This document shows, piece after piece, positions 739 to 63,999 of a stretch of 64,000 nucleotides of DNA. Positions within the stretch are counted from its first letter, which is position 1, and each line of letters opens with the position of its first letter. A program made the translations under genes and the position numbers. Origin of the DNA: Neelides folsomi (taxonomy: Eukaryota > Arthropoda > Collembola > Neelipleona > Neelidae); NCBI GenBank assembly GCA_034687125.1, contig JAQGBZ010000046.1:209974-273973 (forward strand), in the 5' to 3' direction. A model generated the notes under the pieces. The model saw only the letters and a list, made by a program, of their open reading frames with translations, was not told the origin of the DNA and did not search any database.

Positions 739-1713
739 CTAAAAAATAAAAAAGGTTAAAAACAAAACAACACGAGTTTGATGAATATGGAAATTGGAAG
801 TGTAAATTATTTGAAATGAAATTTTAGCATTTAATGATTTTGAACCTTGATCAAATATATTAAAAATATATAACTAAAGATAATTCTGATAGAAAGTTTC
901 ATTATAAAGTATATTAATATAAAAATAGTATGAGAATTTTTAAATTATGAACGATAATATAATAAAAAAATTAATGTAAAAATTGACAAAAGTTTAAGAT
1001 TGTACAAAGTGTAAATTTAAGGTTTAAGTGAAAATTGTATAATTTTCGCTTCTTATTCCGCCAGAAATGCTTTTCATTCCACTATTTATACTCACCAAGT
1101 GACGTTGATAAATCAATTATGAATCTTTAAAAGCAAATAACATTATAATTCTTTTACCTATCTGTAAGTTTTGAATCGTTAAGTATGGATGTGAATTTTA
1201 TATGGCCATTGTCTTTTTCATTTGAATGAAATAAATTTATTTAAAGCCACGAACGATAAAATATTTTGAAAATCTCTTGTTTTGTAATTTTAACCTTTTG
1301 TCTAGAGGTTGTTATTGTTTAATTTGATTTGAATTTGACATTCAGGAATGTCAGGAATAAGAAATTGAAAAATATCCACATTTTTTAAACAGGATTACCT
1401 AAATAGTTAGTTGTACTTGTAGGTAATACTACATACTACATATGATTTGATTAATGTATGTTATGTGCATAAACGAATAGTATGTATTTAATATGTAGTA
1501 TGTAGTTGTACAGTGCTTTTTACGTTTATTGGTTACCTTTTAAAGTATTATAGGAGTGTTACAAAAGTTGATTTTAATTAAGATAATTAATTATGCAGAT
1601 TATAATTATATTTAGGTACCAATTTTCAATAATTGGATGTATTTATCATAATTATTTGCTTTTAGTATTAGTTAAATTCAGATTTCAGAACACCAAATTT
1701 TTTTATAATAATT
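739..1713. other. intergenic or intronic AT-rich stretch
   Basis: This stretch separates the orphan exon from the last exon of the 290-aa gene. On minus it contains a consensus-like splice donor near 1090-1099 (GTGAGTATAA), but the sequence in front of it is closed in all frames or lacks a start. It could be a 5' UTR exon of the gene ending at 136. No other gene seen. Confidence 0.4.
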
Positions 1714-6115: not shown

Positions 6116-9100
6116 ATGAGTGAAGACGAAGAACACGAAGAATATAAAATTGTCTACGAGCCTTTCGACGTCTCAAAACTCAAATATTACAACGATCCAA
6201 GTAGCTCTGAAGAATCAACAAATGAAGAACAAAATGAAGAATTTGAAGGTGGAAACGAAGATGATAAAACAGAAATTGTTGTCGACGAAAATGAGAAATT
6301 TAATTCACTTATGGTGTGGTTTGAAAGGAAGCAAAAAAGAAATAAAATATTTGAGACACGAGAAAAATGGAGTAAGTAATTTTTCTAACACAATTATTTT
6401 AATACGATATTGATATTATGTTGAATTTATTGTAGCTTGTTATCAATATGATATTTATATAATATTTATTAAATTTATGCTTACTCTATATGAGTTAAGT
6501 TTAAAGATGCATTTAATTTTTAACAATTTAGGGGCTGCAAAACAAGAAGGGATGTTAGAAACTGAAGAAACTGACCATGAGTTAAATGAACAAAGCGAAA
6601 TGTTTATTAAAAAGGGATTAGAAGAAATAAATGAAAAGTTCATTGTAAAGGGAGTTTATTCCGACTGGTACAAGAAAATAACAAATGCAAAGTTTCAATC
6701 ATTAACAGATGATGAAGAAGAATTTAGCAAAATAAATGAAAATCTTATCTTGGAAGGAAAACCAAATGAAAACCAAAGTGAAACTGAAATTTCCATAAAA
6801 ATACCATTAACATCTTTAGAATCTAAATATACTCAAGAAGAATCTGAAGAAAAAGAAGACGAAATGACAATATTGTTAGATTATGCATAAATCTTAAGTT
6901 TTTATTTAAACTTAAACTTTAAAATCAAATTCAAGGAAAACATACAAACAGCATTATTAAATTATTTTTACATTTATCACAGACATTCGTATGGAAGCAA
7001 TGCTTTGAAAAGAAATAACATTGAGATCGTCAATTCAAACGTGATCGTTTCAATCAACGGAAATCACCTTCAGTTTCAAGTTGACTCTTCGAGACAAAGC
7101 AAAGTAAACAAAGCGGATATTAAAAATTCCTTATGGAAAAACAAAAAAGCAGATGGAATTTCGACATTTGCAATTCATCCCAAAGAGACATTCATAGCAA
7201 TTGGAGTTTATGGGATTCGCCCTTCGATTTATTTACATTCTTGGCCTGATTTAAAGGAAATTATTGTATTGAAAACACCGGAATGCAATAGTGATTATGG
7301 CTATATGTGTTTTAAGTAACTGATGAATGAATTATTTATTTATATATATATTTAAAAGTTTTAATTCATCATTGAAGCCTATGATATTCAATGAATAATT
7401 GTTTAAATTTTAGCAATTTTGGAAATTTATTATTGACCCAAACACGTGACTTTAAATTAATTGTTTGGAATTGGGAGAGTGAAGAAATAATTTTCAAAAC
7501 ATTTGGAAATTCCATGATTAATAAAGCGTTTTTTTCTCCTGTTGAATCTGACTGTTTTGTTACTGGCAGCAAAAATTCCCTCCAAATATGGAAATTTAGA
7601 AACCAACAAGAATCAAATTTAATTTATGGAAATTTTGCCTTTTGGAAAACGACAAATATAAACTCAATTTGCATAATTCCATCTGGACAAGTATAAAAAT
7701 TTTAATTAAAAAATTAACCATTTCAATTTAAAGAAAAATATTTATAATAAATAACGAAAATGTTATTAATAATGTACATAAATTTCGTTAGATCATAACG
7801 GGAACATGCTGGGGAAATCTTTATGTATGGGAAAATTCGTTGATCATTGGAGAAATTAGATGCCCCAAAGGAAATTGCCACAATGGAGAAGTAACTGACA
7901 TTTTGCATATTAAATCGGAAAGGAATGAAATCATAACAGCGGGAGTCGATGGATTCATACGAATTTGGAAGCTGGAAAAGCTCATGAATGCAATTCACTC
8001 AAACGCAATTGAAAATTGTGTGACAATTGTTATGTTTGAGCACGAATTAAGAATAAGCGAACCTTCATCTTTATTAAACATTCGGAAAAGCTCAATAGAA
8101 GATAATTTTTACCATTTTTATGCAAAAGTAAAATCAAATTAATCCTTTAAATGAATTATGGTTTTTAATTATTATAATAAGCTTTGGTCATAATATGAGT
8201 AATTGATAGCATTTCTGGTATTGTCTAATACAATATGCCTTAAATACATATCACATTATATATAAATAAATATTTTATCATTTTTAGAACAGTAGAGGTG
8301 GAATTTGGAGCGTTGATTTGACAGACGAATACAATATGGTATGCGAAAAATGTTTTGATGTTCCATCAGGTAAAATCAATTCGATTGCCGTCAATCAATC
8401 AAACTTCACAATATTCACCATAGGAAGCGAATTTGGACATTTGCGAATCTATGATTATGCAACTGGAAAATTACTTGCAAAAAAGGAATATCAATATGAA
8501 ATAACTCATGTGAAATGGATACCGTTTAAATCAACAATTAATGAACATTTAACAATAATTACTTCATCTTCTAGTGGGACGATTCGAATGCTAACAATTT
8601 TTAATAACCCAACTAATGAATTAACCAAAATGGAAGATTTTCAATTTTTTACACTCTTTAAAGGAAAACCTCATGAAGGAAAAATTAATATTTTAGAAAT
8701 TCATGGAAAATCTCAATCGCTTTTAACATTCGGAGAAGATAGAACAATATTCATATTTGACATCAAAAATGATCAAGAATCTCAATATCTTTCACTGATT
8801 CCAAAAATTTTGACAAAAATTTCATTTTTAGCTTCGCATGCTTTATCCTTAAACGAGAATGAGATTTTAGTTGTTTCTAAACAAGGAGAAATAGCCCAAT
8901 GTAACGTTTGTAGCATAACAAAGCCAAACACTGAAGAAAATTTTAGTTACTTTGTTGAAGACGTTTTTAAGAATTTGGGAAAGTTTGAGACAATTGTTAA
9001 GAAAAGTCTTATAATAGACAAAATCTATACATTTAATGAAAACCATTTCATTTTTGCTCAAAGTGAAGAAGGAAATCAAATGATTTTTCTCATTCAAATT

Positions 9101-12100
9101 CACTCAATGACTCTCAAACAAATATTCAACTTTGAAAAAGAAAACATTTCTGAATTTAATTTCAGTTGTTGTGCAATTTCGTAAGTTAAACATTTTTAAA
9201 GATCTTACAAAATAATTACAATTATGTATTTATAATAAGTAACTTAATAAATATGATGTATGAATTTTATGGATATTGAACAAAAATTTCATGAATGATT
9301 TAATGAAAATGTTTAAAATGTATGGTATACTTTTATTATTGTAGACCTGATGAAAATTGGTTAATATGTGGAAGTACAAATGGGAAGATTTCAATCATCG
9401 GAAGGAATTATTCAAAACAAATTCCTTACTGCTTTTCCAATTTGTGCATGAATATTTTTCACATACATGACCATGAATCAGGTCACGTCAATCAAGTTGA
9501 ATGGGATTTGAGTGGAAATATATTATTCTCTATAGGAAATGATGGTGGAATTTATACATTATTGAAATCGAATAAATCAGTTTCTATTCAATCTAATATT
9601 CCACAACAAATTGAAAAAGTTAAAATTTAAAACCAAATATTTTAATATGCGAAAGATTCCAAATTTAATTCATAGAATTATTTAACTTTATGAAATGAAA
9701 TGACAATATTTATTCTTATTTTGTTTAATAATATTTTTATTTTAGCCAAAAATTGATGAAATTCCCGATATGGAAAATAATCTTGAAAGGACTTTAGAAG
9801 AGTTAATTAATAAGCCCGATCAAAGTCAAAGAGAATTAGAAAGAATTGAAGATGAAAAAACTGAAATGAGAAGACAACTTACAAGAATGAAAATGGCTTA
9901 TGAAGCTTTAAAACTAAGGCTAGAAATAACGTTCTTTTCATTGTCACATACAGAATTGTATTTAATATTTCAATTGATTATTATATTATTATTATATTAT
10001 TACTTTACAGGAATAACGAATTGCCTCAACAATTTCAGATAAATAAAAAAGAAATGGAATTAAGTCCTGAAATAAGAAAGAAATTTAGAGATGCTCATAT
10101 GAAACATTTAGAAAATGTTCAAATAAATCTTGAATATGAAAGCAAAGTGTCCATCAAAAAATATGAAAAAATTCAGAAACATTATTTTGATGAAATCGAA
10201 ATTGGGCATTTTATAGTTAAAGATATTTCTCACACAATTCAAGTTTCTTCATTCAGACTGAGAAAATTTTCCCAAACATTTGAAGCCATATTGGAAGAAA
10301 ATAAACATGCAATTTTAAAAGAGCTTGGGATTTTTTCTCCAAGATCAAGGTCAAAATCAGTTCCAGCGCCAATTGTAATTCCACCAGTGCAGCGATTATA
10401 TGCTAAAGATGTAATTGGAGATTTCTTTGATAAAGATTTGGATTTGAGGACAGCGCAAGCTATCAGAAAATTAGAAATGAGACTTGAGAAAAAATACGTT
10501 CGAGAATGCAAGGTAATAAATAATAGATATTCCCTCATAGCTATGAATTATATCATTACGATTATGTAATGTTTATTATTGCCAATTCCATAATTATTTT
10601 GTAATAAATTGAAAATGTTCCATATTTTTGATACACTGTATGTATTCATATAAGTGGTCAGAAATTAGTGCAAGTAAACCAGAAGAAGTTGAAGACGAAA
10701 CTGAAAACAATGTTATTCAATTTGCTGAAAGCAATAAAGGCGATTTTATATTAAAAAGCTCTGAAGATTTTTGTGATAACAAAAAAATTACAACTACAAA
10801 TATAAGAAAAAACATTTTGGATTTAAAAAGAAAGGTAAATATTAAAAAAAATTAACTATTTTATAAAATAATGCTCATGTATTCAATACATTCAATTAAT
10901 TTTACAGATTCACAAAAAATCGGGAGAATTTAATGAAAAACTTAAAAAATTAAAAGGCGAAAAGCCTTTTGTTCTTGAAAAATGCCATCAAATTAAAAAT
11001 GAAATATTGAAAATTCAAAGGCTTCTACCACCTAATTATCACCAAGACTTGCCATTGATTTATGAAATTGATGAATCGGAAGTTCCAGAAGATTTTTACG
11101 AAATAGAAATTGATCAAATAAGAGAAAGACAAAGAAACAAATGCCGCGAAATAAAACTGGATTCAAACGTTACATTTACTCCATATTGTAAATATGCATC
11201 CATATCCACATTGACATATAGCGAAGATGAACAAATGAATGAATTGTCAATTATGGCACAATTATTAATTGTTTCTCCCAAAATGTGTGAATTGAGTCAA
11301 GAGCGAGAACAAAGAATGAAAATAACTCTTAATACGAGATTAAATCAACAGAAGAATTTAATTGAAAATCTCAATAAAATTATAAACGATTTCAAAACCA
11401 AAGTTGTAGAATCGAGAAATGAAAGACTCAACAAGGCAATTGATCTCAAATTAATGCACATAAAATTCTTTGCTTTAATTGCCGAATTAAACATTTATAA
11501 AGGAATGGAAAAAATTGAAAATGAAACTAAAATGAAGTATTGGGCTCAAAAAATGAAATTTTCATCTGCTAAAAAAACTGTAAGTAAAATAATTTTTTTG
11601 TTAAAAGCACGTGATTAATTTTTATACTTTTTATATTAAGCTTCGGCAAGAAATAAAGCGGCAAGCGAATTTAGAAAGAGAACATGATCAAATAAAGAAG
11701 AAATTAAAGAAAATCCAATTAAAAGCTGAAGAGTTTATTAACACTCAACCGACAATAATTTCAGATAGACTTTTCAATTTATTTAAAAGAAGAAAACATT
11801 CATTTATCGGTAGAATGAACGACAATTACTAATTACTATTATCAAAATATTATCATTTGTTATATAAAATCTTATTTTAATTTCAGATATTAATTTGGCA
11901 ATGGAAGATGAAAAGAAAGAAGGTTCAAAATCGGAATCAAGTAGCGATGAAGATGATTCGAGCTTTTCATCAAAAGACTCAAATTCTGATTTGGATTCTC
12001 TTCCTCCAATAATAAATAAAGAAAGCAAAGACATTGAAGAAATAGCAAAAGAAGCAAGGACTAATTCACTTTCACAACCTTTATCAATTGAGCTCAGCAT

Positions 12101-17533: not shown

Positions 17534-19086
17534 TCATGTCGAATTTCCGAATCGAATTTCGCAAATAATGCCATTGCAACCTTCCTCTTTACATCGGCAA
17601 GGGATCGGCTTTGTGAACCGGTAATCGATTGTGATTTCTTCGTCATTGTTAATTCTCCGTTTAGCATACATCGCGATCCGGAATTCGGAAATGGGATAAA
17701 CCTCAGTGTTCGGATTGCATGAGTGGTTGATATACCGTGAATAATTTCCGCCTGCTTCGCTATTCCCGTCGATGACAAATCCATTTCCAAGGTCGAATCC
17801 GCAGTGATTATATTGGCCCGCATAGATAGTTTTGGTACGATCGTCAAACAATTTTGATGAAATGACTTCCCCCGAATACTCCACAATGAAATCATCCTTC
17901 TTGATCACCTGAGCAGCGAAGAGTCCAGCACCTTTATCAGGGGTTTCTCTAACTTCAGTTAATGCAGGAATACCCATTTTTACTTTCTCTAAAATTAACA
18001 AAGTGAGAATTGGTCAATTTTATAAAATTGTTTTTTAAAAATATTAATAAAATTAATAATAGAATAAATATAATCAATTATTAACAAATTATTGTTTAAA
18101 TATCATACTTTGACTCTGAGCATATTGACAAATTGTCTCTTCCTCCTTTGGAATATCAATCACAATTTGAGGCTTAAGAACTCTGATGTTAGAACTTTGT
18201 CCAGCGGCTGCAAAAGCATCACTAATCATTTTGGTAGTAATATCACTTGTATCGAAGTCTTCAGGGACGAAAACCCTTATATTTTTAATTTGATGTTTAT
18301 TCTCTTCTTTGGGCTTTACAGTGGTTTGGTTTTGTGAAGTTTTGGCTTTTTCCGATTTTGCTTTTGCCAATTTTGCTTTTGACATTTTCATTGCTGCCTT
18401 GGCCTTCTTTGCAGCTTCTGCGACTTTTGCTTTTTCAATCGCTTCAGTTTTTAATTTCTCCAATCGTTCGGCTTCTTTCTTGACTAAAAATTATGAAATG
18501 TTGAGAAATTGTCAGTATGGTGTAATTAATTCCTTTTTTGTAATAGATTAGTAAAATAATTAGCATCGTCGTTTTTGTATTACAACAGTATGATAACACA
18601 AGATATAATAAAAATCATTTCATAATTTGTGTACATATAATCAATTATGTCATACTTTTGTCAAAATACTTTTATAATATATTTTAACAAATGAAATATA
18701 AAAAGAATTAGTTAGTCAATATATTCATCTTACCCTCCAGATCTTCAAGAAATGCTTTTATAATTCCTCGCTCTTGTTTAAAATTAATCTCAATTTTGGG
18801 TTGAAAAATGTGTAAATTCAACGACGAAAGTTCAGTTCCAGCAGGGATGATGGGATCGAGAATGATTTGCTTCTGAAAGAACAAAAATATCTCTAAAAAT
18901 ATCAGGCCCATACAATCCAATTTTAATAAATATTAATTAATTTGGTTAATCAAGTTTTTAATGAAATTAATAGTGTTAAAATTTGGTATTTACACTAGTA
19001 GTAGGTTTAGCCCCAATCGTCTTCTTAACTCGCTTCATTGAAATAATTTTTGGTTTTTTCCTCAATGGTTGCTTTCCTGGAGCCAT
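17534..19086 (-). CDS. SET-domain protein lysine methyltransferase, 353 aa, no pre-SET
   Basis: Exons on minus: 18994-19086, 18734-18872, 18109-18483, 17534-17988; phases agree (1062 nt). The N-terminus is basic (MAPGKQPLRKKPKIISMKR) and could direct nuclear import. Residues about 75-130 are an Ala/Lys-rich helical repeat. The SET domain fills roughly 205-335, with GAGLFAAQ (cofactor loop), IVEYSGEV, FVIDGNSEAGGNYSRYINH and the hallmark NHSCNPN, then EEITIDYRF. The post-SET CRCKEEGC (CxCx4C) completes the zinc site near the active centre. All expected SET catalytic motifs are present. The AWS/pre-SET cysteines normal for SET2/ASH1 or SUV39 classes are missing, so the class and substrate (histone or other) cannot be assigned. 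Confidence 0.85.
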
Positions 19087-28468: not shown

Positions 28469-31437
28469 TTATGGGAGTGGTGGAACTCCATTAGGATAAA
28501 GTTCATGGGCTACGCCCACCCATCGGTCCCTTGTATTTCCATTATAGACGTAATCGTCTTTCTTTATAACAATAATTTCTTGTCCTTCTTTCGTATATGC
28601 TGGCCAAGCTTCTCCATCTGGTCCATTTGGATTTCCATAATAAGCAAAATTGACCCAATATTGAGTAAATCTTTTTGCAACGTACAAATCGTTATTCCAG
28701 ATCAATGGAAGAAATTGGAACTGAAATTAAAAAAAAAGTTTTATTGATTTAATTAATCAATTCCATAATTAAATGACTTGATCAAAAATGTAAATAAAGT
28801 TGCACCACGAGTCTCTTTTATATGCTTACCAAATACCTGAAATAAAACAAACAGTTGAGTGAATTAATTAATTTAAATTAGCTTATAAATGAATGAATTC
28901 TAAATCATCTATTATGGAACTTATAACGATTTCTTACAACATGTCATCTGTGTGGGCGACTCCTATAAAATTTAAAAAAAACGTTAGTGAAAATTAATCA
29001 CCAAATTTTTTTTGCAAAATGACAAAATTAATAATAATGTTTCATACCTCCTGGAATAATTGAGTCAGGTGAAACAAGAACAATGTAATATAGGGTCCAC
29101 ATTCCACGATAGTCAAAGTCATAATAGTAAACATCTCTTTGAATTTTCTCGTGGAGTTCAAGCAATTGAAGTGATGCTGATTTCATTCCAAAAACTGAAG
29201 TTAACTAAAAATTGATAAAAATCAATTATTAAAGATAAAATTAAACTGTATAGTTACAAAAAATATCTTTTTACATCAATAAGTCCTGGGAACTTTTCTG
29301 GAAGTCCTGGGGATCTATAAGCTTCTTTCATAAAAGTTTTTCCTAAAGAATAGAGCATATTTCCGCTTGAACGGTCGTCAATATCTTCCAAACCTAAATT
29401 TAAAAAAATATTTAATATTAGCCGTTTATTGTAATAATGTAATTTTTTATAATAAAATTTTAGTAATACCAATAAAGTTCATAAGATTTGGGAGTAAATC
29501 ATTTTTCAAATAAGTTTCATTTTTCTCAAGCCCATTGTGTTTAATATAATCTTCATACAGTTTGTCCAAAAAGTAAGTTCCGTCGTGTCTTGTTGATCCC
29601 ATCATCAAAGGAACATTGTATTGCTCTCCACGCTCAAAGACTCCCAAAGGAGCTTCTGGAACAATTTTTTGAGTGTTGACCAACTTCGGACTATCTTGAA
29701 CTGATGCGACCTTTGCATCAAATCCCAACCCAAGCCCATTGTTTTCCTGATGAGTCGTGTGGTTGTTCGTGGCCCAAACAAGATCTTTGTAATCGACGGA
29801 TTCCATGCATTCTAGAACGCCTGCAATGACGAGGTCATCTTCTGGGTCCAGATCTTTGTTGTAGCATCCCGCGAAAAAGGCCACGTCCAAATAAAAAGGT
29901 AATGAAGGGCGACGGGCAGTTCCCCATACGGCTGTGGCACTTCCACTGGATCCAATAACACCGTGATAATAACCATCAGCCATTCTTGAAGCCATCAATT
30001 GGGAGACCATCATAGCCCCTGCACTTTGACCAGTGATCGTAACTCTATTTGGATCTCCTCCAAAATGAGCGATATATCTAAAAAAAATTAAAAAATTATT
30101 ATTAAATAAACAACCCATTAAATTGTAAATCAAAGAAGACTGTATAAATTACTTAACTATAATTGTATGAAATAGGTTAAACATTTATAAGTATATTGCT
30201 TTTAAAAAATTTAATTACTCTTTAATCCATTTAAGAGAATTCAGAGCATCGTAGAGAGCAGCATTTCCGGGAGCTCCATCAATCCCCAAATTCATTCCAC
30301 CTAAATTTTATTAAAATCAAAATTAAGGAATACCAAATACCAAAATTCTTAAATAAGTTACGACATAAGATCATATTGATACGTCATATAACATAAATAT
30401 ATCGCCTTACATTTAGGATACAGCTATGATAGCATAAAATGCATAAATTATACTTATATTTAAATAGACACTTCATTGTTACCTAATATAGTTAATATTG
30501 AATGGCTTTATCTTTATCAGTCTGAATTTTTTAATCAATATGCTAACCTAGGATTCCGAGTCTGTAATTGATAGAGACGAGTACAACGGGGTGATTCATG
30601 AATCGAAGGCCGTTCCATAAAGAGCTCCAAATTCGGTTAGAACCTTTGACCAAAAAACTAATTAACTTACAGTCATTATTTATTATTTACAAACAATTTC
30701 CTAATTTTATTATCTAATAATCCCACATATAATCGTACAATATAAAAAACATTAAATGGTCGAACCTCCTCCATGAATGAAAACAATGACTGGATAAAGT
30801 TGATCGTAATTTCCACCCTCGTCGGGTAAATTGGGTGTATTTATATTTAGAATCAGACAATCTTCAGCTCCCATAACTCCTTCGGCTTTGATGCTCGCCC
30901 TCCTCTTTTCCTTCATCTGCTGAGTTAAAGTCTCGTAGATTTCAGCCGCTTCAGCGGGATCTTCAACTTTCCCTTCTTTTTGGAAAATCTCGTCGTCCTC
31001 ACGTGGGAGAGCAATCGGATCAAACAAGGCATCTTGAGGACAAATTACAGCACCTCTTGTGGCATTGTATTCTCCTCCGTTAACTTCTAATAATTCTTCA
31101 AGTGGGTATAAAGTAGATGGCTAGGACAAATTTAAATTATCCGCTCTTTAAGTTATTATTTTATTTAATTGCTGTATTTATTGTTTTATGGTTATACAAC
31201 GATTAATTATTGTTAGTGTTGGTTATTTATATTTAAATTACCTACCTTAAATCTCATTGGTCCAGATGTATCATGGGCATATGGAATGCCTGCAAATGCG
31301 ATGTAACGATTCGCATCCACTGTAAAATGAACCATTCCATTTACACGTCCATGTGGAGTGTCAACGAAATATTGACCCATTGAAATAGAAGAAATAGCTA
31401 AGAGGCATAAAATGGAAAATGTCGTTTTTAAATACAT
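28469..31437 (-). CDS. type-B carboxylesterase, about 635 aa, 10 exons, one phase conflict
   Basis: Exons on minus: 31246-31437, 30766-31120, 30548-30657, 30219-30300, 29470-30077, 29275-29393, 29048-29204, 28938-28962, 28830-28836 (7 nt), 28469-28720. The signal peptide is MYLKTTFSILCLLAISSISMG. Family marks in order: CLILNINTPN, FIHGGG (oxyanion), NYRLGILG, the nucleophile elbow GQSAGA, GSTRHDGTYF (acid residue, Asp where Glu is usual) and GVAHTDDMLYLF (catalytic His). It should hydrolyse esters in a secretory or extracellular setting, in the juvenile-hormone-esterase and alpha-esterase fold family. Every join is in phase except exon 2 to 3, which is one base off at a TTTTTT run. The gene is either subtly broken or carries an assembly indel. 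Substrate unknown. Confidence 0.85.
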
Positions 31438-48600: not shown

Positions 48601-51341
48601 TTTGGGAATTATTTAATGAACATACCTGATACCTGTTGTACAAAAATATTTATTTACTTCCTAGAATAGGGATAATTGATAGTTCTATTAAAACCCATAT
48701 AATAATAATAGCTTCGTTTTTTCAAATATCCAGTTAAAATGTTATTTAATTAAAAAAAACAATCTCAAAAATAATTTTATCAAGTACTATTTTGATTGCT
48801 ATTCATTTTCAAGGATTGTTTTTCCAAAAAATCTTTTGCTTTTATCAACATCATTATAACCTGAATTTCCTCCTTGAAGCCCCCGCAATGTTATTTTGTT
48901 CCATGAAGTTTGCGACGCGTGGAAAATGAGGTTTTAAAATAATATTTTAATCTCCTTCCGTCTCTGTCTCTTATCAAGGTTATCAGGGTGTGTGGAGATG
49001 ATCGAGTTAAGGAGCCAAGTTTACAATGTCGGGTTCATAAAAGTGCCCCAAGGAAAGTGGAAGAGATTATGAAACCGGAGAATAAATTCAAAACTTTTAA
49101 AATGGAATTTTAAATGATCAAAGGCCCCCCATAATGAAAGGGAGCATTGAAGTGTAATTGAATCTCAAATTAAAATCACTTCCATATAACTAATTTTTTT
49201 ATTTTACTTTTATGCTACCCATTAAATAAATAAGATACATAGGTAATAGGTATACATACATACTTAACAAACCCTTGTTTTCATCTTAAATGTATAATAT
49301 AGGTATGTGTAGTTAATTAATTTATGTAATGCAATATTCATATTGTTTGAAACTTATGAAGCCAAGTTCTTAATCTTAATTTCAAATCCAATGTTAATTT
49401 CCAAATTCTCATTTGAGAAATTTCCTTAAATGTAATTTAAAACTAATTATATTTAAAATTGGTAAAAGTAGCTTATCATATTACTGGTGCCTACTTTTAA
49501 GAACTCCGTCTAAATCCTCATTCAAGGAGAAGAAAGGGAGAAGGAAATTTTGCAAATTGAATTTCAATGTTCTCTATTGTTCAAAACTTGAGTAAAATCC
49601 CAATTTTGCCCTAATCAATTATTCGATTTTTAATGGACAAACTTTAAGTGAATTTGGGATTGCGTCACTCAGAAGGACCCTTGGAAGTTGGACAATGGAC
49701 TTTTAATACCTTAAACAATTCAACGCCATGAGAAACTTCCTGTAGGTGCGAAATTCTCTTATTTTAGAACCCTGGACAATGAAATGGACAATAAAGGACT
49801 TGTGACGTTTTGCTGTTCAGTTAAATTGTTTACCATGCGGGTATACGGGAGAAGTGGACAAAGTTCCCAGAACGTAGATTTAACATTTACCAATTTCGGA
49901 AGGAGGAAGCTTTTGCTGCCTGCGTCGTTGATTAAAGAAATGATTTTTAATTTCCGTTCGAATCAATTAAAAGGGGAAATGGGGGCGTCAGGCGACAAAA
50001 CTCTTCACTTTCATCATCATGAATAGGAAATTAATAATGAGCAGCTGAAGAAAGTAAAGTAGTTTTACAATTTTTATGTGTAGGTAAAATGTATTTTTTA
50101 ATTTTCGTTTTATTGTTAGGAGTGTTTGATTTGATCCATATAAAAGAAATATTAATATATTTTAAAATTTGTATGAAACACGTAATTGATGATGTTGATT
50201 CAATAAAAATATTTTAAAATTTTAAAAACAAAATTAATGTTTTATTCTTTATTGATATCATTAAATAAAAGTTCCTTATTTATTTTAACAAAATTGAATA
50301 TAATTAATTTAACATCACATTATGTTTACCTTTATTTTCAACAAGTCTCTTTACTGAGTTGATCTGATTTCAAATTTTCATACATATTGATATCTTTTCA
50401 AGTCTTTCTTTTTTATAATTGACATTGGATCATTAATACTTATTTTCATTGGATCATCAAGAGACTTTTAATCATATGATATAATTTTTCATAGAATCCA
50501 TATTAAACTTCTTACTCAATATTTTTCACATTTCTTTTCAACTTAAAAGAGACTCTTTTATCAATCTATTTTTTTATTAAGGAATGATTAAGTCATGCAA
50601 TTACTAACATTAAATTACATTATTACATAATATGTGTTATTTTATAGCATTTGAAATGCATTAATCATAAGTTTCTTATTAAATATTAAGATTATATTTT
50701 AAAGCAAGCAAAATGGAAACTTTATTATACCTACCACTCATCATATGGTTAGTAATTATTACTCACATAGTACAGAATAATAATTGTATTTATTATCTTT
50801 AAAAAATAAATATCCTTATTAAATTTTAACCAATAAAAATGTGATAAGTACGGATTTATTAGCAACATTTTTGCGAAGCCAAAAATAAGCAAAGCGTCTT
50901 TGATTTAACTTATTCACAATCACAATTAGGTATTAATATACTATATTATTTTAGTATATTGACATTAAAATTCTATGAGGTAGAGGTAGATGCATATATT
51001 TATGTGTAATGATAATAATAATATTATTATGTAGGTTACAATGTACACAATCACATTAATATACTAATGTAAATAGAGTATATTAGTAATAATTCATTTA
51101 AATTTTTTTATAAAGAATAACATCAAAATTAGAAAGTTTTTACAGATAATATTATATGATAATATATTTAATACGTAAGGAGTATATTATATTTACTTCT
51201 TCACTTTATCTGTGTACTGCGACATTGCTCTCAATATGCAGATTATTTTTATTAAGTTGTAATATGTTGATTGCATTTGAAATTTTCATTGCAATTTGGA
51301 TGTTATTTAATGCTTTTTCCAAAAAATATTTTTGGTGTTGT
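45666..51341. other. 5.7-kb intergenic stretch, no gene seen
   Basis: AT-rich with some GC-richer patches (about 47380-47540, 48990-49130, 49640-50030). The open frame at 49784-50026 has no splice context and no recognisable motif. A TATAAATG near 45931 has no gene downstream. Confidence 0.4.
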
Positions 51342-54300
51342 TTATCGCCTTCGTCCGAGACCCATCGTTGGCCATAGCCATCTTGGACTGTAGTTGTTTG
51401 CCTTCTCGAGATAAATCTCGTCATCCGATTGTTTCACCGGTTTAGCGAAATTCCTTATTTTGTGCTTCTGCTCGATTTTAATAGGAGCGTATTGGAACTC
51501 CGAAGCTGAAAGTAAGCAAATGTCAATATATATGCATCTTGGAGAATATACGAAAACGCCCACGCAAAATCTTGGGCTTTCCTTCAACACGCCAAATGTC
51601 CGTGTTCTTAATTATCTCCTTTGCTCCACTTTCTCCTCTCATCAGTCCATAAAAGTGAAGTTGATATAACTCCCATGCTTTATGATGGGAGAGAAATAAT
51701 ATTGAATAACGTTTCTAAAAATCTCTTATTACATCATTAACTCTCATTTTCTAATTATACCTCAGGTGAATAGAATAATAATAAATCAATATGCTATAAA
51801 AATTAATCCCCCGCCTTATTAAATCCTGGTTCATATTTCAAATGCAAAACATTATATTTAATAGTTAAAAATTATTATCAAAATTGAGTAATTATACTTT
51901 CAATTAACTATAATAATTATTTAGGTAAATTAATGATGCAAATTTTAATGAAAGTATTAATCTCCAGTTATTTATTATCTACCAATAGTAATAATTGGGA
52001 ATGAATATGTATGTATATTGAGAGATTGTGATGTTACCATCACAGCCGCGCAGGCCTAGAGGCCCATTGCAGTTTGTTTCAGCCTATTCACAAGTATTTC
52101 TTTACTCCGTATGGCACACATTATCAATATTAGATTGATATGTGTGTTTCCAGCGGAGAGTAATTTACCCCCGTGTTGTATACGCTATTGGTATTAGACT
52201 AATTTGTATGCTTCCATGGGGATACTTAATTGTGACCGTGTGTGTGTGCAATGTGGGCCACCTATGTGCTCTTAGGGAGAGAAATGGGAAGACCTTTTGC
52301 ATTTAGTCCTCAACTGACCTGGTAGGGGCCACTGGCCAACCCGGCTCCACCTCTTGGTGAGCTCTGGTCCTTTCGCCAAGGTGAACCCCTCATCGCCAAT
52401 TTCGAACCTCGACTCTTCCTGATGGGTGTAACGGGCCATCCCGTTCACCCATCCAGGCAAGCTCAGGGCCCAAAATCTGCTTAACAAGGCAACTCGTGAA
52501 CACTATCTCTCCCTCAAAGCCAAACTGTTCGGCCCCCTGGGAATGAAGATGCATATTTTAATAATTTGTATGATGTTATATTTTGAATGAACTTTTTTAA
52601 CTAACTTCTTATATCGTATGGTTAAAGTTTTACGTGTTGCATTTACGATTTGTTATTTTCAATTTTTTGAATGTAAATTATGATATTTGACATGAACTTC
52701 ATGAACACATAATCATGGAATTTAATGGAATCTCATTTGTTGCACAAACGCGTAATAAACATCATAATAATAAGTATTACGGTAACGATAAGAAAAATGA
52801 CCGGAAGACAATAAACCAATTTCATCATGATTGTTTTCCCATTTTCCCTTCATCACTCAAAGCCACTCAAAGACTGCACGAGTTCTCCTTAGGATAAGTT
52901 AAGTAAGCTATTTCTTCCACTTGGTCATTTCTCTCTCTTTCTCGTCCAGCTCCATTAGTTCTAAATAAACTTACCGAGATCCTGCGAGCCAAAGTTTCCT
53001 GGTTCTCTTCGTCTCTCAAATTGGCCTTTGAATGTTTTTCCAACTCGGCCCTCATCTTCTTGGATTGCTTCAATGTTATCCCGAAGATGTTCAAAAAACA
53101 TTTCCATGTTGCTCAACGCTCCTAAAATCAATCAATTGACCTTACATAAGTGATGTCTTTTATCGAAAGAAACGGTCCTCATCGTTGTAAAACTCAATTT
53201 GAGTTAAAATAGCTATTCACATTCTCCTAATGGTTCAAGCACAAATCTAAAGGGCAATCCCAACGTCATTTAATTATCCAACGAATCCCCCTCTCACTGA
53301 TATTGTAAAGTTGTGTCTTGACATAATGTATTTTGGTTCTTTGTATTATCTTACTAATTTCTTAGTAGTTGGAACTTGATATAAATAATAAACTTGCTTT
53401 TCCAGGAAATTTCCCAGGTTTGGAATTTTATTGATAAATCAATGAGGGATTCTCCATAATAAAAATTGTAAATAAAAGGGGTAGATTTCCATTGTTGAAA
53501 CAAAACATAAGAATGGAGCATTTGGTAAAATGGGGGATCGTTTATTGATGTTGAATTTAAGTAAATAAAACTCACTTGGGCCAATGAATGGATTGAATGT
53601 TGAATGTTCTCGGTCGAATCCGTAGAGTTCTTCTTCAGAGGAAGCCGAGTTGTCGATGGGCCCTACGGGCTTCAAAAGAGCTTTCCCTCCCGTTCGTCCA
53701 AATCCGCTGAAGGAAGGAAAAGGAAAGGAATTAGGCCCCAATGCCCTTCGTGCTAAAACCCTCTCATCGTCTTTGAAGGATGATTGAGGAGATGGTGGAC
53801 GGAGTAACCTGTGGAGATATGAAGGATTCTTCAGGTGATAAGTCGACCCAAGGGCTTCACCGCCTTCGATCCCGTCAGGGGCATAGTTGGGACCGCGTGA
53901 AACTCGGCGTTGATTCACAACGGCTGGAACATACGGTCCTATGCAAAAATTATAATAATAAATAAAATAAAATAATAGCTTATATCATACAAGTGTAAAG
54001 TTTATGCTTTTTGAAAATTATTGTAGTTTTTATTTAATATGTATGGTATTTATGAATTTGTAGATTGCGAAGAACTTTTCAACAAATATTCAAAAGATAT
54101 TTATTTTTTAAAGTTTTCTTTACATGAAAGATGTAAATAAGAAAAAATGGGACAAATAATTATTGTAAATGGATAACTGTGGGAAAGTTTTGAAGAAAAT
54201 GTACTTTTAGAATCCACTACATTAATACTACAAATGTGCGTATTCTACGTAGGTATGTATATGTTTACTTATCTAGTGTCGTCTTTGTCAAACTTCGGTT

Positions 54301-56369
54301 TGAACTAATCCATCAAAGAGATGAAGATCGAGTAAAAGCAATAGAAAGTAATGCAAACTTTTCCCTTTTTATTCTAAACTTCCTTTCCAAGATCTAGAGT
54401 GGAATCTGATTCGCTTTTATTAGTAAAAATTGAGAAAGAGAGGAAAATAATTAAATTAACTTGAAGTCAATTTCTCAAATCTTTTAAATCCAATTATAAA
54501 GTTTAGCAATGTGCGAGATTTGATCTTTTGTAAGAAATAGTTTAGTTAGGGGAGTTGAAAGCGTGGGAAGAATTTATTCATAGAACCCCTTTCAATTCCT
54601 TAACTCTATTACAGTCTTGGAAATAATTCTTTGTTGAATTTAATTGCAATAAGCCTTCAACGAAGCGCAATTCGCTTACAATTTTTAAATTTCAATGCTT
54701 GAAATTTTTATACAATTTTAAGCTTTTAATAAAAATGAATACTTGTAAATTTTTTACATTTAAATCCTGGCATTGAATTTGGAATGAATTTATATTATTA
54801 GCAATAAGATATAATTCTTATACGTGTATGGGAGGTATTTACTTAATCAAATTAAATTTATTGATTCAAACTTATACTTATTTAGCCTAAATTTTATTCT
54901 GACACTTAATAAAATAAAATTTCTGGTCCTGAATGGTTGGGAAATTGATTTTTATTTCTTTCTAAAGATGTTCGACCTATTAGTGAATAGGTCGAATATT
55001 GTTGGTACAAAAGCTTTATTTAAAGATCCGATTTAATTAGCGATAAAAAGCCTGACGCCCGTCACTTCTTTAAAAGTCTCAACGTAGAATGTTGTGAGCG
55101 ATAAGGCAGGGAAGAAGAGACGAGGAAAGGAAAAGTGTTCTTAATAGGAAAGATGCAGAAGAGAGATTAAAACAAACAAACAAAACCCACACTACTCGCC
55201 CACTAAACCTTTGACTTATACAAAGAGAGAAAAGAGGACGAGGGAAAGTTTGATGAAGATGATGATGAAGACGGTGATTGCTTATAGAACCAATATTGGG
55301 GGATTGGAAATCAATCATGATATCATTGCTGGCTCAATTACTCTTTTGACTAAAAACCTGCGGAGGCGTTTTTAGAAAATAAGATCATTTCGGTCATATT
55401 ATGTGCGTCTATTTGGCAAAGATTCTTCTATGTAACCCTTTTATTTTAGCAAAAAACTATAAACCTTTCCTTCGGTCAAGTTTTCAGTTGTTTTAATGTA
55501 AGAATAATGAAATATGGAATTCGTTATTTGTTACAATACTAAAATTCCTTCTTAATATATTTATACAAAATATTAATTTTATTAAAATTTTCGTATTTGG
55601 CTCTGTTTATTCTTGGAAAAGAAACTTGATAGGTTTTAAAACAAAGAAATATAGTATAGCGTGGGTGTTAGCCCGATTCGTATTAATAATAATCCCTTTT
55701 TAATCTTTTAATTTCTTTTTGCCATTTTTCCTAAACAAACTTATATCAGTATTTAGCCCGTTTTGGTCATTAAGAGGATTAAAAACTTAATTTGTGAATA
55801 CCAAACATTTAGACAATGTAATGTGTACAAATCCACAAATAATTCCACAATATCTAACATTAAATGTATATCCCACAATACAGGATACAGGTATAGGTAA
55901 GTATTATACTATTTTACAATTTTAATATCACATACATAAATAAGTAAGTAAGATAGGCCCAGGATGAGAACACAAAATCTGTATTTGACACATTTCACGG
56001 TTTTTGATCTCATTATCATAAGCTAATCATGAAATAACGTTTCCAGAATAAATGATTTATTTAATTAATAATTAGTAACCAACTGCAACTCCATCGCTTC
56101 TTCTTTGTATAATTTTGATTCTTTAGTTCAATAAGTTAAACATATTTACATATTCTACATGCATAGAGTATATAAAATATATGTAAAGACAATGAAGCGA
56201 TCTTAAATGGTTTTAAGATTACAAATTAAGTATACATCGTAAATTCTAAATCTTTTAACCCTGTCAATTAACAGATAAAAGTCTCACCTTTGAGGATAGA
56301 TCCAAGATAGCCATTCACGAACGTCATTCCAAATGCGAACATGATTAAAAAGGAAAGTGAGCGACCCAT
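51342..56369 (-). CDS. candidate neuropeptide/prohormone precursor, 251 aa, 4 coding exons
   Basis: Exons on minus: 56288-56369, 53576-53938, 52975-53121, 51342-51505. All donors are strong (GTGAGAC, GTGAGTT, GTAAGTT), phases agree (756 nt), and introns are long (2.3, 0.45 and 1.5 kb). Exon 1 is a signal peptide (MGRSLSFLIMFAFGMTFVNG). The rest has no cysteine. Possible prohormone-convertase sites are VNQRR, VLARR, GQFERRR and a terminal GLGRRR right before the stop. The last is the standard layout for alpha-amidation after basic-residue trimming, leaving ...RWLWPTMGL-amide. Other parts: a Gly/Phe/Pro segment (FPFPSFSGFG), an acidic spacer (SASSEEELYG) and a helical stretch (MEMFFEHLRDNIEAIQED). 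Codon use is richer in G+C than neighbours. It matches no precursor I know. Function as a secreted peptide source is inferred from layout. Confidence 0.72.
52020..52560. repeat. GC-rich insert in the last intron of the prohormone-like gene
   Basis: About 540 bp are conspicuously GC-richer than the flanking intron, with sharp edges. It includes AGGCCTAGAGGCCCATTGC and a long Pro/Arg-coding-like minus frame without motifs. It looks like an inserted repeat, for example a truncated non-LTR retrotransposon or SINE, but no terminal structure was found. Confidence 0.4.
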
Positions 56370-57564
56370 TCTAACAATCAAATTTCTTATTAAAAATATC
56401 TATAATGTTTAATTCAACAAGACTTGAGTAATTGAGCGAATTAAACAATTAGATTGGTTTGGTTAGGATCGTTTCTGGTAAGAATAAGATAAATATGAAA
56501 ATCGGAGGTTTGTGGAAAGTCGAGTGTGAGAAATGCGGGGAGCAACTGAGAATCTCGGAAGGAGGGTTCCGGATTTAATACACAATTTTCTCCCTCCCGC
56601 GGCGAGACACAGATTTGTGTAGGCAGATCCGACGTGGTTCGTCGTCCCTACGCAAGTTACCTTCCTAATTATAATGACCAAATGCCAAATGAATCATCAG
56701 ACACTTTAATTGATAATTACTCTACTTACAGTTTAAACAACTTTACACCTAATTTCAAATCCGTGCATTATACAGTACATAGTTAATTATAAACGTTATA
56801 ATTCATACAAGGTACAATAGTGTATTAGTAATTGGACCTTTTATTTGAACTTTTAATCAAATTGGCTTATTAAATTAGTATGAATATTATATGTTGGAAC
56901 CAACTTCGATACTGGTGTCAAGTATTTAGCCAGTTTTTAGAAATTTTAGGTATCCTATGTTAGTATATTGAAATATCAGAACATTTTCTAGTATCATATT
57001 GTCATGAATGGCATAATGATGTAATAATTGGCAAATAGCGCTTAAAAATGTTATAAATAATTAAATAATGGATAACCGATATTTTAAATTGTTTGGTTTC
57101 CAGTTGTTTGAAATGTGAATAGAAAATGATTGCATTTTTGATTCCTATTCAATAGATACTTCATAAAAGTAATAAATAAAAATTATCAATATTATAGCTT
57201 AAATAATGACAAATGATTGGCCTAATCTTTACATATGACGAGAATTAATAATCCCAACAATAATTTATTCAATTTTCCATATACAGTATGAACATTATGA
57301 GGGTCTTTTTAGGGTTTATAATCTTTATAACATTATAACATAGTTTTATTTGTTAAATGGGTCTGTGTGAATTCTATCAAAGTCATAACATTGACGAGAG
57401 ACATTTCCCTCAACATATCATGGGAAATGGACGAAAGATCCTTTGTATTTACTTAATGTTAGATATTATCTCTGCTTGGTTCGGGCAATAAAATAATGAT
57501 TAAAATGATGTCTAATTTTGATGAATTTAATAGCTATTAGATTTTAATAAGTAATTAGTAATAA

Positions 57565-61849: not shown

Positions 61850-62852
61850 TTAAACTTTTTTTGCAATTGTTAAAAACATTCCATAATACACATTTGTTTG
61901 TTTAGAATCAATACAACTTAAAGGTTTTTCCCCATGTTTTGAGAGACTTGCTCTTAAACAAAAGTCTTTCAATTTTCTCAATTTTTCATCATCCAGCTCA
62001 TCAACCAATGATGTCATAAATTTATTTTTATACAAAGTCCAAAGGAATTCAAGTGAATTAAATAATTCTTCAGAATTCTCAGCTTCCCAATATTTCTCAA
62101 TGTATTCAATATCAACAGATTGGAATCCTCCAGTAGTAATTAAATCCTTCCACATTTTCCTTTGCTCAATTTCGTTCAACATCTCTTTAAATATTTTTCT
62201 CCAATTGCTCATTTCAAATTCTGTTGGAAGGAATTGGGAAATGTTTCGAATGTATGTAATATTTGCATACAAAGTTCCGCCAGGTTTAAGCAGTCTAAAA
62301 ACGTTTTTTCCCATGGTGGTTTTATCATCAACCCAATGGAGAACTCGATTTGCCCAAATGATGTCAAAAGATGACTCAAGGCTTGATAGGCTTAGAGGTA
62401 AATTATTCCATTGGGCTCCAATGTCCGCGACAATATATTTAATATTTTTGTTTGGATATTTATTTTCAGCGAATTGGACCATTTTTGAGTCAATATCCAT
62501 TGATATGATCTTGGCTTGCGGGAATTGATTAGCGAGTAAATCAGTTACGTTGCCACTGCCGCATCCAATGTCAAGAATAAAACATGACCTAAAGGATTAT
62601 AATTTTATAATCAATTTTAAATTTACCCCTATAATATAATGTATATTATTTATGTTATTATTATTATACTCAATTGTTTTTGTTATTTATGATCGATTAA
62701 TTTTAAAAAATGTCAATTTAGTAGATAAGTAACTAGACAAGAATAGAAAGATACCGATTTATTTGAATTTTATCAATTTTTTGTAAAAGCTCTTCAGCAT
62801 CCCTGAATTGAGCACCGTTAACTTTGTTGTACTTGTCTGGATTAAATTCCAT
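61850..62852 (-). CDS. SAM-dependent methyltransferase, juvenile-hormone-acid-methyltransferase-like, 278 aa
   Basis: Exons 62755-62852 and 61850-62588 on minus join in phase (837 nt). The N-terminus MEFNPDKYNKVNGAQFRDA is followed by class I motif I FILDIGCGSGNVT, the acidic turn of strand 2 (ISMDID), then ADIGAQW, FDIIWANRVLHWV and FRLLKPGG. The layout, the about 280-residue length and the VLHWV motif match the arthropod juvenile hormone acid methyltransferase family, which transfers a methyl group from SAM to the carboxyl of farnesoic or JH acid. Many arthropods carry several paralogs with unproven substrates, so I call it JHAMT-like only. No signal peptide, so cytosolic. Confidence 0.85.
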
Positions 62853-63925: not shown

Positions 63926-63999
63926 GGCCTGTTAACTCAGTTGGTTAGAGTGCCGTGCTAATAACGCGGAAGTCACAGGTTCGATCCCTGTACAGGCCA
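63926..63999 (+). tRNA. tRNA-Ile (anticodon AAT)
   Basis: A 74-nt cloverleaf with acceptor stem GGCCTGT/ACAGGCC, D-loop TCAGTTGGTTAGAG (A box), anticodon loop CTAATAA giving AAT, and T arm CAGGTTCGATCCCTG (B box), with discriminator A. Intron-free and apparently intact. The window ends one base later, so a terminator cannot be judged. Confidence 0.95.

What the first reader, a model, noticed from the sequence alone, without database searches (positions are those of the whole stretch)
51342..56369. Undescribed cysteine-free prohormone with a C-terminal amidation signal
Four exons with strong splice sites and perfect phase give a signal peptide, several dibasic/tribasic sites and a stop directly after GLGRRR, the layout of an amidated neuropeptide precursor. 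The terminal SPRWLWPTMGL-amide matches no arthropod peptide family I know. Long introns and a remote TATA-bearing 5' UTR exon fit a regulated neural gene. Seen: exons, signal peptide, basic sites. Known: convertase cleavage and PAM amidation at Gly-basic motifs. Inferred: that it makes a bioactive peptide.
Basis: partly seen in the sequence, partly recalled or inferred. Interest (0 to 1): 0.78.

Follow-up and report, generated by a model that had tools for sequence, protein, structure and literature searches.

The report
Orphan amidated-peptide prohormone candidate gene
A small, probably arthropod genome carries a four-exon gene that looks like the precursor of a long signalling peptide of no family we could identify; it is a credible candidate hormone gene, but nothing yet shows that it is expressed, conserved or bioactive.

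Summary
The gene is there, on the minus strand. Four exons (56369-56288, 53938-53576, 53121-52975, 51505-51342), joined through three GT-AG phase-1 introns, encode a cysteine-free 251-residue protein with a signal-peptide-like start and a stop directly after GLGRRR. Open frames and codon usage support coding, unevenly between exons. The terminal G-RRR is well above chance; the number of dibasic sites is not. The genome's own myosuppressin-like exon also ends in GRRR-stop. Two corrections: nothing basic precedes the proposed 11-mer SPRWLWPTMGL-amide, so the dibasic-bounded product is 60 residues (188-247), or 32 (216-247) with a monobasic cut; and a remote 5' UTR exon is not needed, since a TATA-like box, an initiator and an ATG-free leader lie just upstream. 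Family and homologue searches gave nothing for it. Insect parathyroid hormone, the best lead, was tested and rejected. No second copy was found. Most likely an orphan prohormone releasing one long amidated peptide. Conservation in relatives, the decisive test, could not be run.

The parts
56573..56580 (-). TATA-like box TATTAAAT; its first base is 33 bases upstream of the initiator A
   Evidence: motif scan; function inferred
56544..56549 (-). initiator-like TCAGTT; predicted start (A at 56547) of a 178-nt 5' leader without an ATG
   Evidence: inferred
56288..56369 (-). coding exon 1: start codon and signal peptide, donor AAG|gtgaga
56310..56369 (-). predicted signal peptide MGRSLSFLIMFAFGMTFVNG (residues 1-20)
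   Evidence: crude rule; cleavage after G20 inferred from the -3,-1 rule (recalled)
53939..56287 (-). intron 1, 2349 nt, phase 1
53576..53938 (-). coding exon 2 (residues 28-149, end codons shared with the neighbours), acceptor gcatag|GAC, donor CAA|gtgagt
53904..53909 (-). dibasic site RR38-39
53745..53750 (-). dibasic site RR91-92
53122..53575 (-). intron 2, 454 nt, phase 1
52975..53121 (-). coding exon 3 (residues 149-198, end codons shared), acceptor ttttag|GAG, donor TCG|gtaagt
53006..53014 (-). tribasic site RRR185-187: predicted convertase cut that frees the terminal 60-residue peptide
   Evidence: cleavage inferred
51506..52974 (-). intron 3, 1469 nt, phase 1, containing a dispersed repeat
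51342..51505 (-). coding exon 4 (residues 198-251 and stop), acceptor tttcag|CTT
51357..51452 (-). residues 216-247, NFAKPVKQSDDEIYLEKANNYSPRWLWPTMGL: 32-residue amidated product if R215 is also cut
   Evidence: monobasic cut inferred
51345..51356 (-). amidation and cleavage signal G248-RRR249-251
51306..51311 (-). candidate polyadenylation signal ATTAAA, beginning 31 nt after the stop codon
   Evidence: inferred

Best explanation
A single-copy gene for a secreted peptide-hormone or neuropeptide precursor of no family identified here. After signal-peptide removal, a proprotein convertase would cut at RRR185-187 and at the terminal RRR249-251; a carboxypeptidase would trim the arginines and PAM would turn Gly248 into the amide of Leu247. 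The product would be one long amidated peptide of 60 residues (188-247), possibly shortened to 32 residues (216-247) by a monobasic cut after KHKIR. It would then act on a receptor, most likely a GPCR. Shown: gene layout, open frame, signal-like N-terminus, basic sites, terminal G-RRR-stop, no second copy found, and domains of the processing-enzyme families in the genome. Inferred: expression, cleavage, amidation, receptor, neural site.
For: Four exons, three phase-1 GT-AG introns, 251 residues without cysteine. Codon score above all 3000 random segments drawn. Exon GC 0.42-0.51 against 0.28-0.36 for the introns. Signal-like start. Terminal GRRR in 9 of 200,000 shuffles. The genome's only match to a myosuppressin pattern reads ...KRQDMDHVFLRFGRRR-stop, so this genome ends a known kind of amidated precursor in the same way. 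Processing-enzyme families are present: 5 P_proprotein and 45 Cu2_monoox_C pieces, the latter not resolved into PAM and other members. Class B receptor pieces exist too (25 matches to 7tm_2), but nothing links them to this peptide. No Pfam, NCBIfam or PDB match that would give it another job. All 4 matches of the protein in its own genome at E <= 10 are its own exons (the tool scores only its best candidates).
Against: No homologue in the protein database at E <= 10 (none of 894 candidates; the hits match the Tribolium part of chimeric queries), so no conservation of the basic sites or the amidation signal is shown. Basic runs are at chance number. The nearest dibasic site lies 60 residues before the amidation signal. 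Codon evidence is weak for exons 1 and 4, and exon 4 holds the proposed C-terminus. The structure model of the exon 4 peptide is poor (mean pLDDT 69.1, pTM 0.17, one helix at model residues 27-37). No transcript data.
Confidence: 0.6

Rival explanations
1. A strongly diverged member of a known neuropeptide family: either allatostatin-A/GLamide-like (C-terminal -MGLamide), or one of the recently named insect precursors that could not be compared here for want of sequences (HanSolin, RFLamide, Carausius NPLP, Fliktin and others).
For: C. elegans nlp-5 is reported to give MGLamide peptides that resemble allatostatins (PMC3414713, passages). Neuropeptide precursors often keep only a few residues of the mature peptide (established knowledge), which the word-based search would miss. 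The 2016 survey of basal hexapods screened a fixed list that does not name these newer precursors (PMC4770511, results section part 1 of 2).
Against: The paper gives Y-X-FGL-amide as the allatostatin end; here it is TMGL, in one copy and in a long peptide. Insect parathyroid hormone, the one family that I could test with fetched sequences, failed.
Confidence: 0.2
2. A secreted non-hormone protein (salivary, seminal, immune or cuticular) whose C-terminus happens to end in GRRR.
For: Signal-like start, but no conserved peptide shown and only a chance number of basic runs; orphan secreted proteins are common (established knowledge).
Against: A terminal GRRR arises in 9 of 200,000 shuffles and the genome's myosuppressin-like exon ends identically. 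No cysteine, unlike many secreted effector or immune peptides (established knowledge).
Confidence: 0.15
3. A wrong or decayed gene model: exons of different genes or non-coding sequence joined by eye.
For: Exons 1 and 4 do not score above all their alternative frames, and one antisense frame of exon 2 scores higher. The third intron contains a dispersed repeat.
Against: Three consensus donors and acceptors with matching phase, about 2 in 10,000 joint probability of open frames (uncorrected), good start context, a promoter-like element and an ATTAAA at fitting distances.
Confidence: 0.05

Closest known systems
Insect parathyroid hormone (iPTH / PXXXamide / QSGamide), Tribolium castaneum
   Same: Signal peptide, one long amidated peptide, G-basic processing signal; an S-D pair in the peptide
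   Different: The six fetched beetle proteins share KRVSDxHLADL...ALNNK.KG..(I/V)T(M/I)PVG.G.ID..(R/K)I-GR; none of this core is present here beyond the SD pair. iPTH has a C-terminal extension after the peptide
Myosuppressin-like exon of the same genome (L036)
   Same: Exon ends with one amidated peptide and GRRR-stop
   Different: Peptide QDMDHVFLRF-amide follows directly after KR; no sequence similarity seen by eye
Allatostatin-A / nematode nlp-5
   Same: -GLamide end; nlp-5 has -MGLamide (PMC3414713, passages)
   Different: Allatostatin-A end is Y-X-FGL-amide; here a single long peptide with WPTMGL
Long amidated ligands of class B receptors as a kind (CRF-like DH, PDF; from established knowledge)
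   Same: Long, amidated, cysteine-free, a possible short helix
   Different: No sequence resemblance noticed; no alignment was run

Membership tests
Amidated neuropeptide precursor (as a kind) | N-terminal signal peptide | tested here: met
   crude rule only, met by 16 of 552 window frames; no dedicated predictor available
Amidated neuropeptide precursor (as a kind) | peptide bounded by basic cleavage sites | tested here: inconclusive
   RRR185 and RRR249 bound a 60-residue peptide, but basic runs are at chance number
Amidated neuropeptide precursor (as a kind) | Gly followed by basic residues at the end of the peptide | tested here: met
   GLGRRR-stop; 9 of 200,000 shuffles
Amidated neuropeptide precursor (as a kind) | mature peptide conserved between species | tested here: inconclusive
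   no homologue found; no relatives of the genome held
Amidated neuropeptide precursor (as a kind) | expression in neurons or endocrine cells, peptide detected | not testable with these tools
   no RNA or peptide data
Insect parathyroid hormone (iPTH) | conserved mature core, as in Tribolium and five other beetle proteins | tested here: not met
Insect parathyroid hormone (iPTH) | strictly conserved amidation and cleavage signal GXX | tested here: met
   GRRR here; rule from PMC7224569 passages
Insect parathyroid hormone (iPTH) | Pro at position -4 of the amidated end (described as mildly conserved) | tested here: not met
   Pro at -5 here; rule from PMC7224569 passages
Allatostatin-A | C-terminal Y-X-FGL-amide | tested here: not met
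   sequence ends WPTMGL; rule from PMC3414713 passages
Allatostatin-A | several paracopies in one precursor (recalled) | tested here: not met
   one GL-G-basic signal in the 251 residues
HanSolin, RFLamide, Carausius NPLP, Fliktin | their mature peptide motifs | not tested

The most novel reading that the evidence does not exclude
A lineage-restricted prohormone family whose ligand is a single long (32- or 60-residue) Leu-amide peptide with two Trp near its end, ...SPRWLWPTMGL-amide, unknown in other arthropods, implying an unrecognised peptide-receptor pair in this lineage.
Probability: 0.35. Interest if true: 0.55.

Novelty: new member of a known kind. Interest (0 to 1): 0.4.

Why it matters
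If real, it adds an orphan ligand to a small genome that is probably an arthropod's, and a concrete sequence to test against orphan receptors. It also marks a class that family searches miss: single-copy, long, fast-evolving amidated peptides. If it proves a diverged member of a known family, it would still show how far such peptides can drift.

Tried and rejected
Insect parathyroid hormone: suggested by an SD pair and a long amidated peptide; rejected after fetching the Tribolium precursor and five other beetle proteins.

iPTH in the same genome: a search with the Tribolium precursor gave nothing, which shows little, since the tool had no positive control.

Motif terms IDPGRI, PVGGGR, WPTMGL and ANKTMP (9 papers, all listed) gave only the known Tribolium epitope paper as relevant; no listed paper held WPTMGL. 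TMGLamide, MGLamide, TMGL-NH2, WPTMG, PRWLW and TMGLa (14 papers, 10 listed) gave only the nlp-5 parallel as relevant.

Taxon. A CCAP-like pattern gave 0 matches exactly and 0 with one mismatch; collembolan variants with a deletion would have been missed. DIOX_N, tried as a springtail hint, gave 8 pieces, but the best one is closest in the PDB to a 2-oxoglutarate-dependent ethylene/succinate-forming enzyme, and no isopenicillin N synthase is among the 26 sequences listed, so it does not place the genome. A myosuppressin pattern gave one match, with a Met variant (QDMDHVFLRF). The 18S search did not complete. The organism therefore remains unnamed; arthropod is inferred from the myosuppressin-like exon and from my own reading of receptor-like frames in the window, which no call confirmed.

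Other published iPTH sequences: term passages (not whole texts) of PMC9552230, PMC10570428, PMC12604039, PMC10148640, PMC3890597, PMC5996578, PMC6425005, PMC8398477 and PMC8557429 were seen; none of the passages prints an iPTH precursor.

Structure prediction of the exon 4 peptide gave a low-confidence model (two searches were collections before it was ready); no fold search was made.

Full report
What is there. The gene lies on the minus strand. Exons 56369-56288, 53938-53576, 53121-52975 and 51505-51342 are joined by three GT-AG introns of 2349, 454 and 1469 nt, all phase 1, and encode 251 residues without cysteine. The start codon has a good context. A TATA-like TATTAAA at 56580, an initiator-like TCAGTT at 56549 and a leader without any ATG precede it, and an ATTAAA begins 31 nt after the stop. 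A remote 5' UTR exon is therefore not required, though an AG just before the ATG leaves it possible.

Is it coding? The four frames stay open in 1591, 143, 648 and 306 of 4000 dinucleotide shuffles, a product near 2 in 10,000 that is not corrected for choosing the borders. Codon frequencies were taken from ten other window frames that I chose (2025 codons). Seven of the ten were scanned against Pfam, and three of those seven match a family above its cut-off. With them the gene scores 0.180 per codon; 3000 random segments from 32-50 and 57-61.5 kb of the window average -0.158 (s.d. 0.068), and none is as high. The score partly reflects GC content: the exons have 0.42-0.51 GC, the introns 0.28-0.36. 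Exon by exon it is uneven: exons 1 and 4 do not beat all their other frames, and one antisense frame of exon 2 scores higher. I give the wrong-model rival 0.05.

Is it a prohormone? The first 25 residues contain the only strongly hydrophobic stretch and pass a crude signal-peptide rule that 16 of 552 open ATG frames of the window pass. The end, GLGRRR-stop, is the amidation and cleavage signal; it arises in 9 of 200,000 residue shuffles, and the looser G-[KR]2-3 form in 457. The number of basic runs is not evidence: 4 observed, 4.15 expected. A precedent comes from the same genome: the only match to a myosuppressin pattern reads GVKRQDMDHVFLRFGRRR-stop in what looks like a last exon. Domains of the processing-enzyme families are present (P_proprotein 5 pieces; Cu2_monoox_C 45 pieces); I did not resolve which piece belongs to PAM. 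Class B receptor pieces are present as well (25 matches), without any link to this peptide.

What would be made. Between RRR185-187 and RRR249-251 there is no other dibasic site, so the predicted peptide is residues 188-247, 60 residues, amidated at Leu247. The run KHKIR before N216 fits a monobasic site (basic residues at -3 and -5; rule recalled) and would give a 32-residue amidated peptide. An AlphaFold model of the exon 4 peptide (53 residues, no alignment) has mean pLDDT 69.1 and one helix at model residues 27-37; it is too weak to lean on.

Does it belong to a known family? Pfam 0 families, NCBIfam 0 (a library for prokaryotes), PDB 0, protein database none of 894 candidates at E <= 10 (at most 100 of the protein's 5-residue words are used). 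That database does hold arthropod proteins: a chimeric query found the Tribolium parathyroid-hormone-like precursor (1 of 5 candidates, E 8.7), and a second one found it with five other beetle proteins (6 of 66 candidates). In both, the match lies in the Tribolium part of the query. No second copy was found in the genome (all 4 matches are the gene's own exons). The best lead was insect parathyroid hormone, whose amidation signal is described as strictly conserved and whose S-D pair as highly conserved (PMC7224569, passages). The six beetle proteins share a core, KRVSDxHLADL...ALNNK.KG..(I/V)T(M/I)PVG.G.ID..(R/K)I-GR, that is absent here apart from the SD pair; rejected. The -MGLamide end recalls C. 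elegans nlp-5, described as resembling allatostatins (PMC3414713, passages), but three residues are no membership. Several newer insect precursors could not be compared, because I saw no sequences of them. The 2016 basal-hexapod survey screened a fixed list of families (PMC4770511, outline and results part 1 of 2), so a lineage-specific precursor could have escaped it.

Verdict. An ordinary-looking but orphan amidated-peptide precursor candidate. Conservation in relatives and spliced reads would decide.

Noticed in passing
window 52015-52540 (approximate ends): A GC-rich dispersed repeat of about 0.5 kb sits in intron 3; 25 matches in the genome (a lower bound), several near 90% identity. A GGTTCGAA stretch, like a tRNA-type B box (recalled), suggests a SINE; eight loci compared.
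   Followed up: partly
genome G000, 45 pieces, e.g. L026 and L027: The copper monooxygenase C-terminal domain (PF03712) matches in 45 pieces spread over many contigs, suggesting an expanded PAM/DBH-like family.
   Followed up: no
L036, about 1485-1575 (minus strand): Single myosuppressin-like exon with QDMDHVFLRF-amide, Met where Val is usual (recalled); ends in GRRR-stop.
   Followed up: partly
genome G000, L032-L035: DIOX_N domain pieces (8); the best resembles a 2-oxoglutarate-dependent ethylene/succinate-forming enzyme: possible horizontal transfer or a contaminant contig.
   Followed up: partly
genome G000: No match to a CCAP pattern, exact or with one mismatch, although the peptide is described as generally highly conserved in arthropods (PMC4770511). 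An intron inside the motif would also hide it.
   Followed up: partly
window 61850-62596 and 29447-30148 (minus strand): A methyltransferase frame (Methyltransf_11) and a carboxylesterase-family frame.
   Followed up: no
window 17534-18013 (minus) and 8288-9184 (plus): A SET-domain frame, and a frame with WD40-type matches that stay under the curated cut-offs.
   Followed up: no
window 63926-63999: tRNA-Ile (AAT) at the window's end.
   Followed up: no
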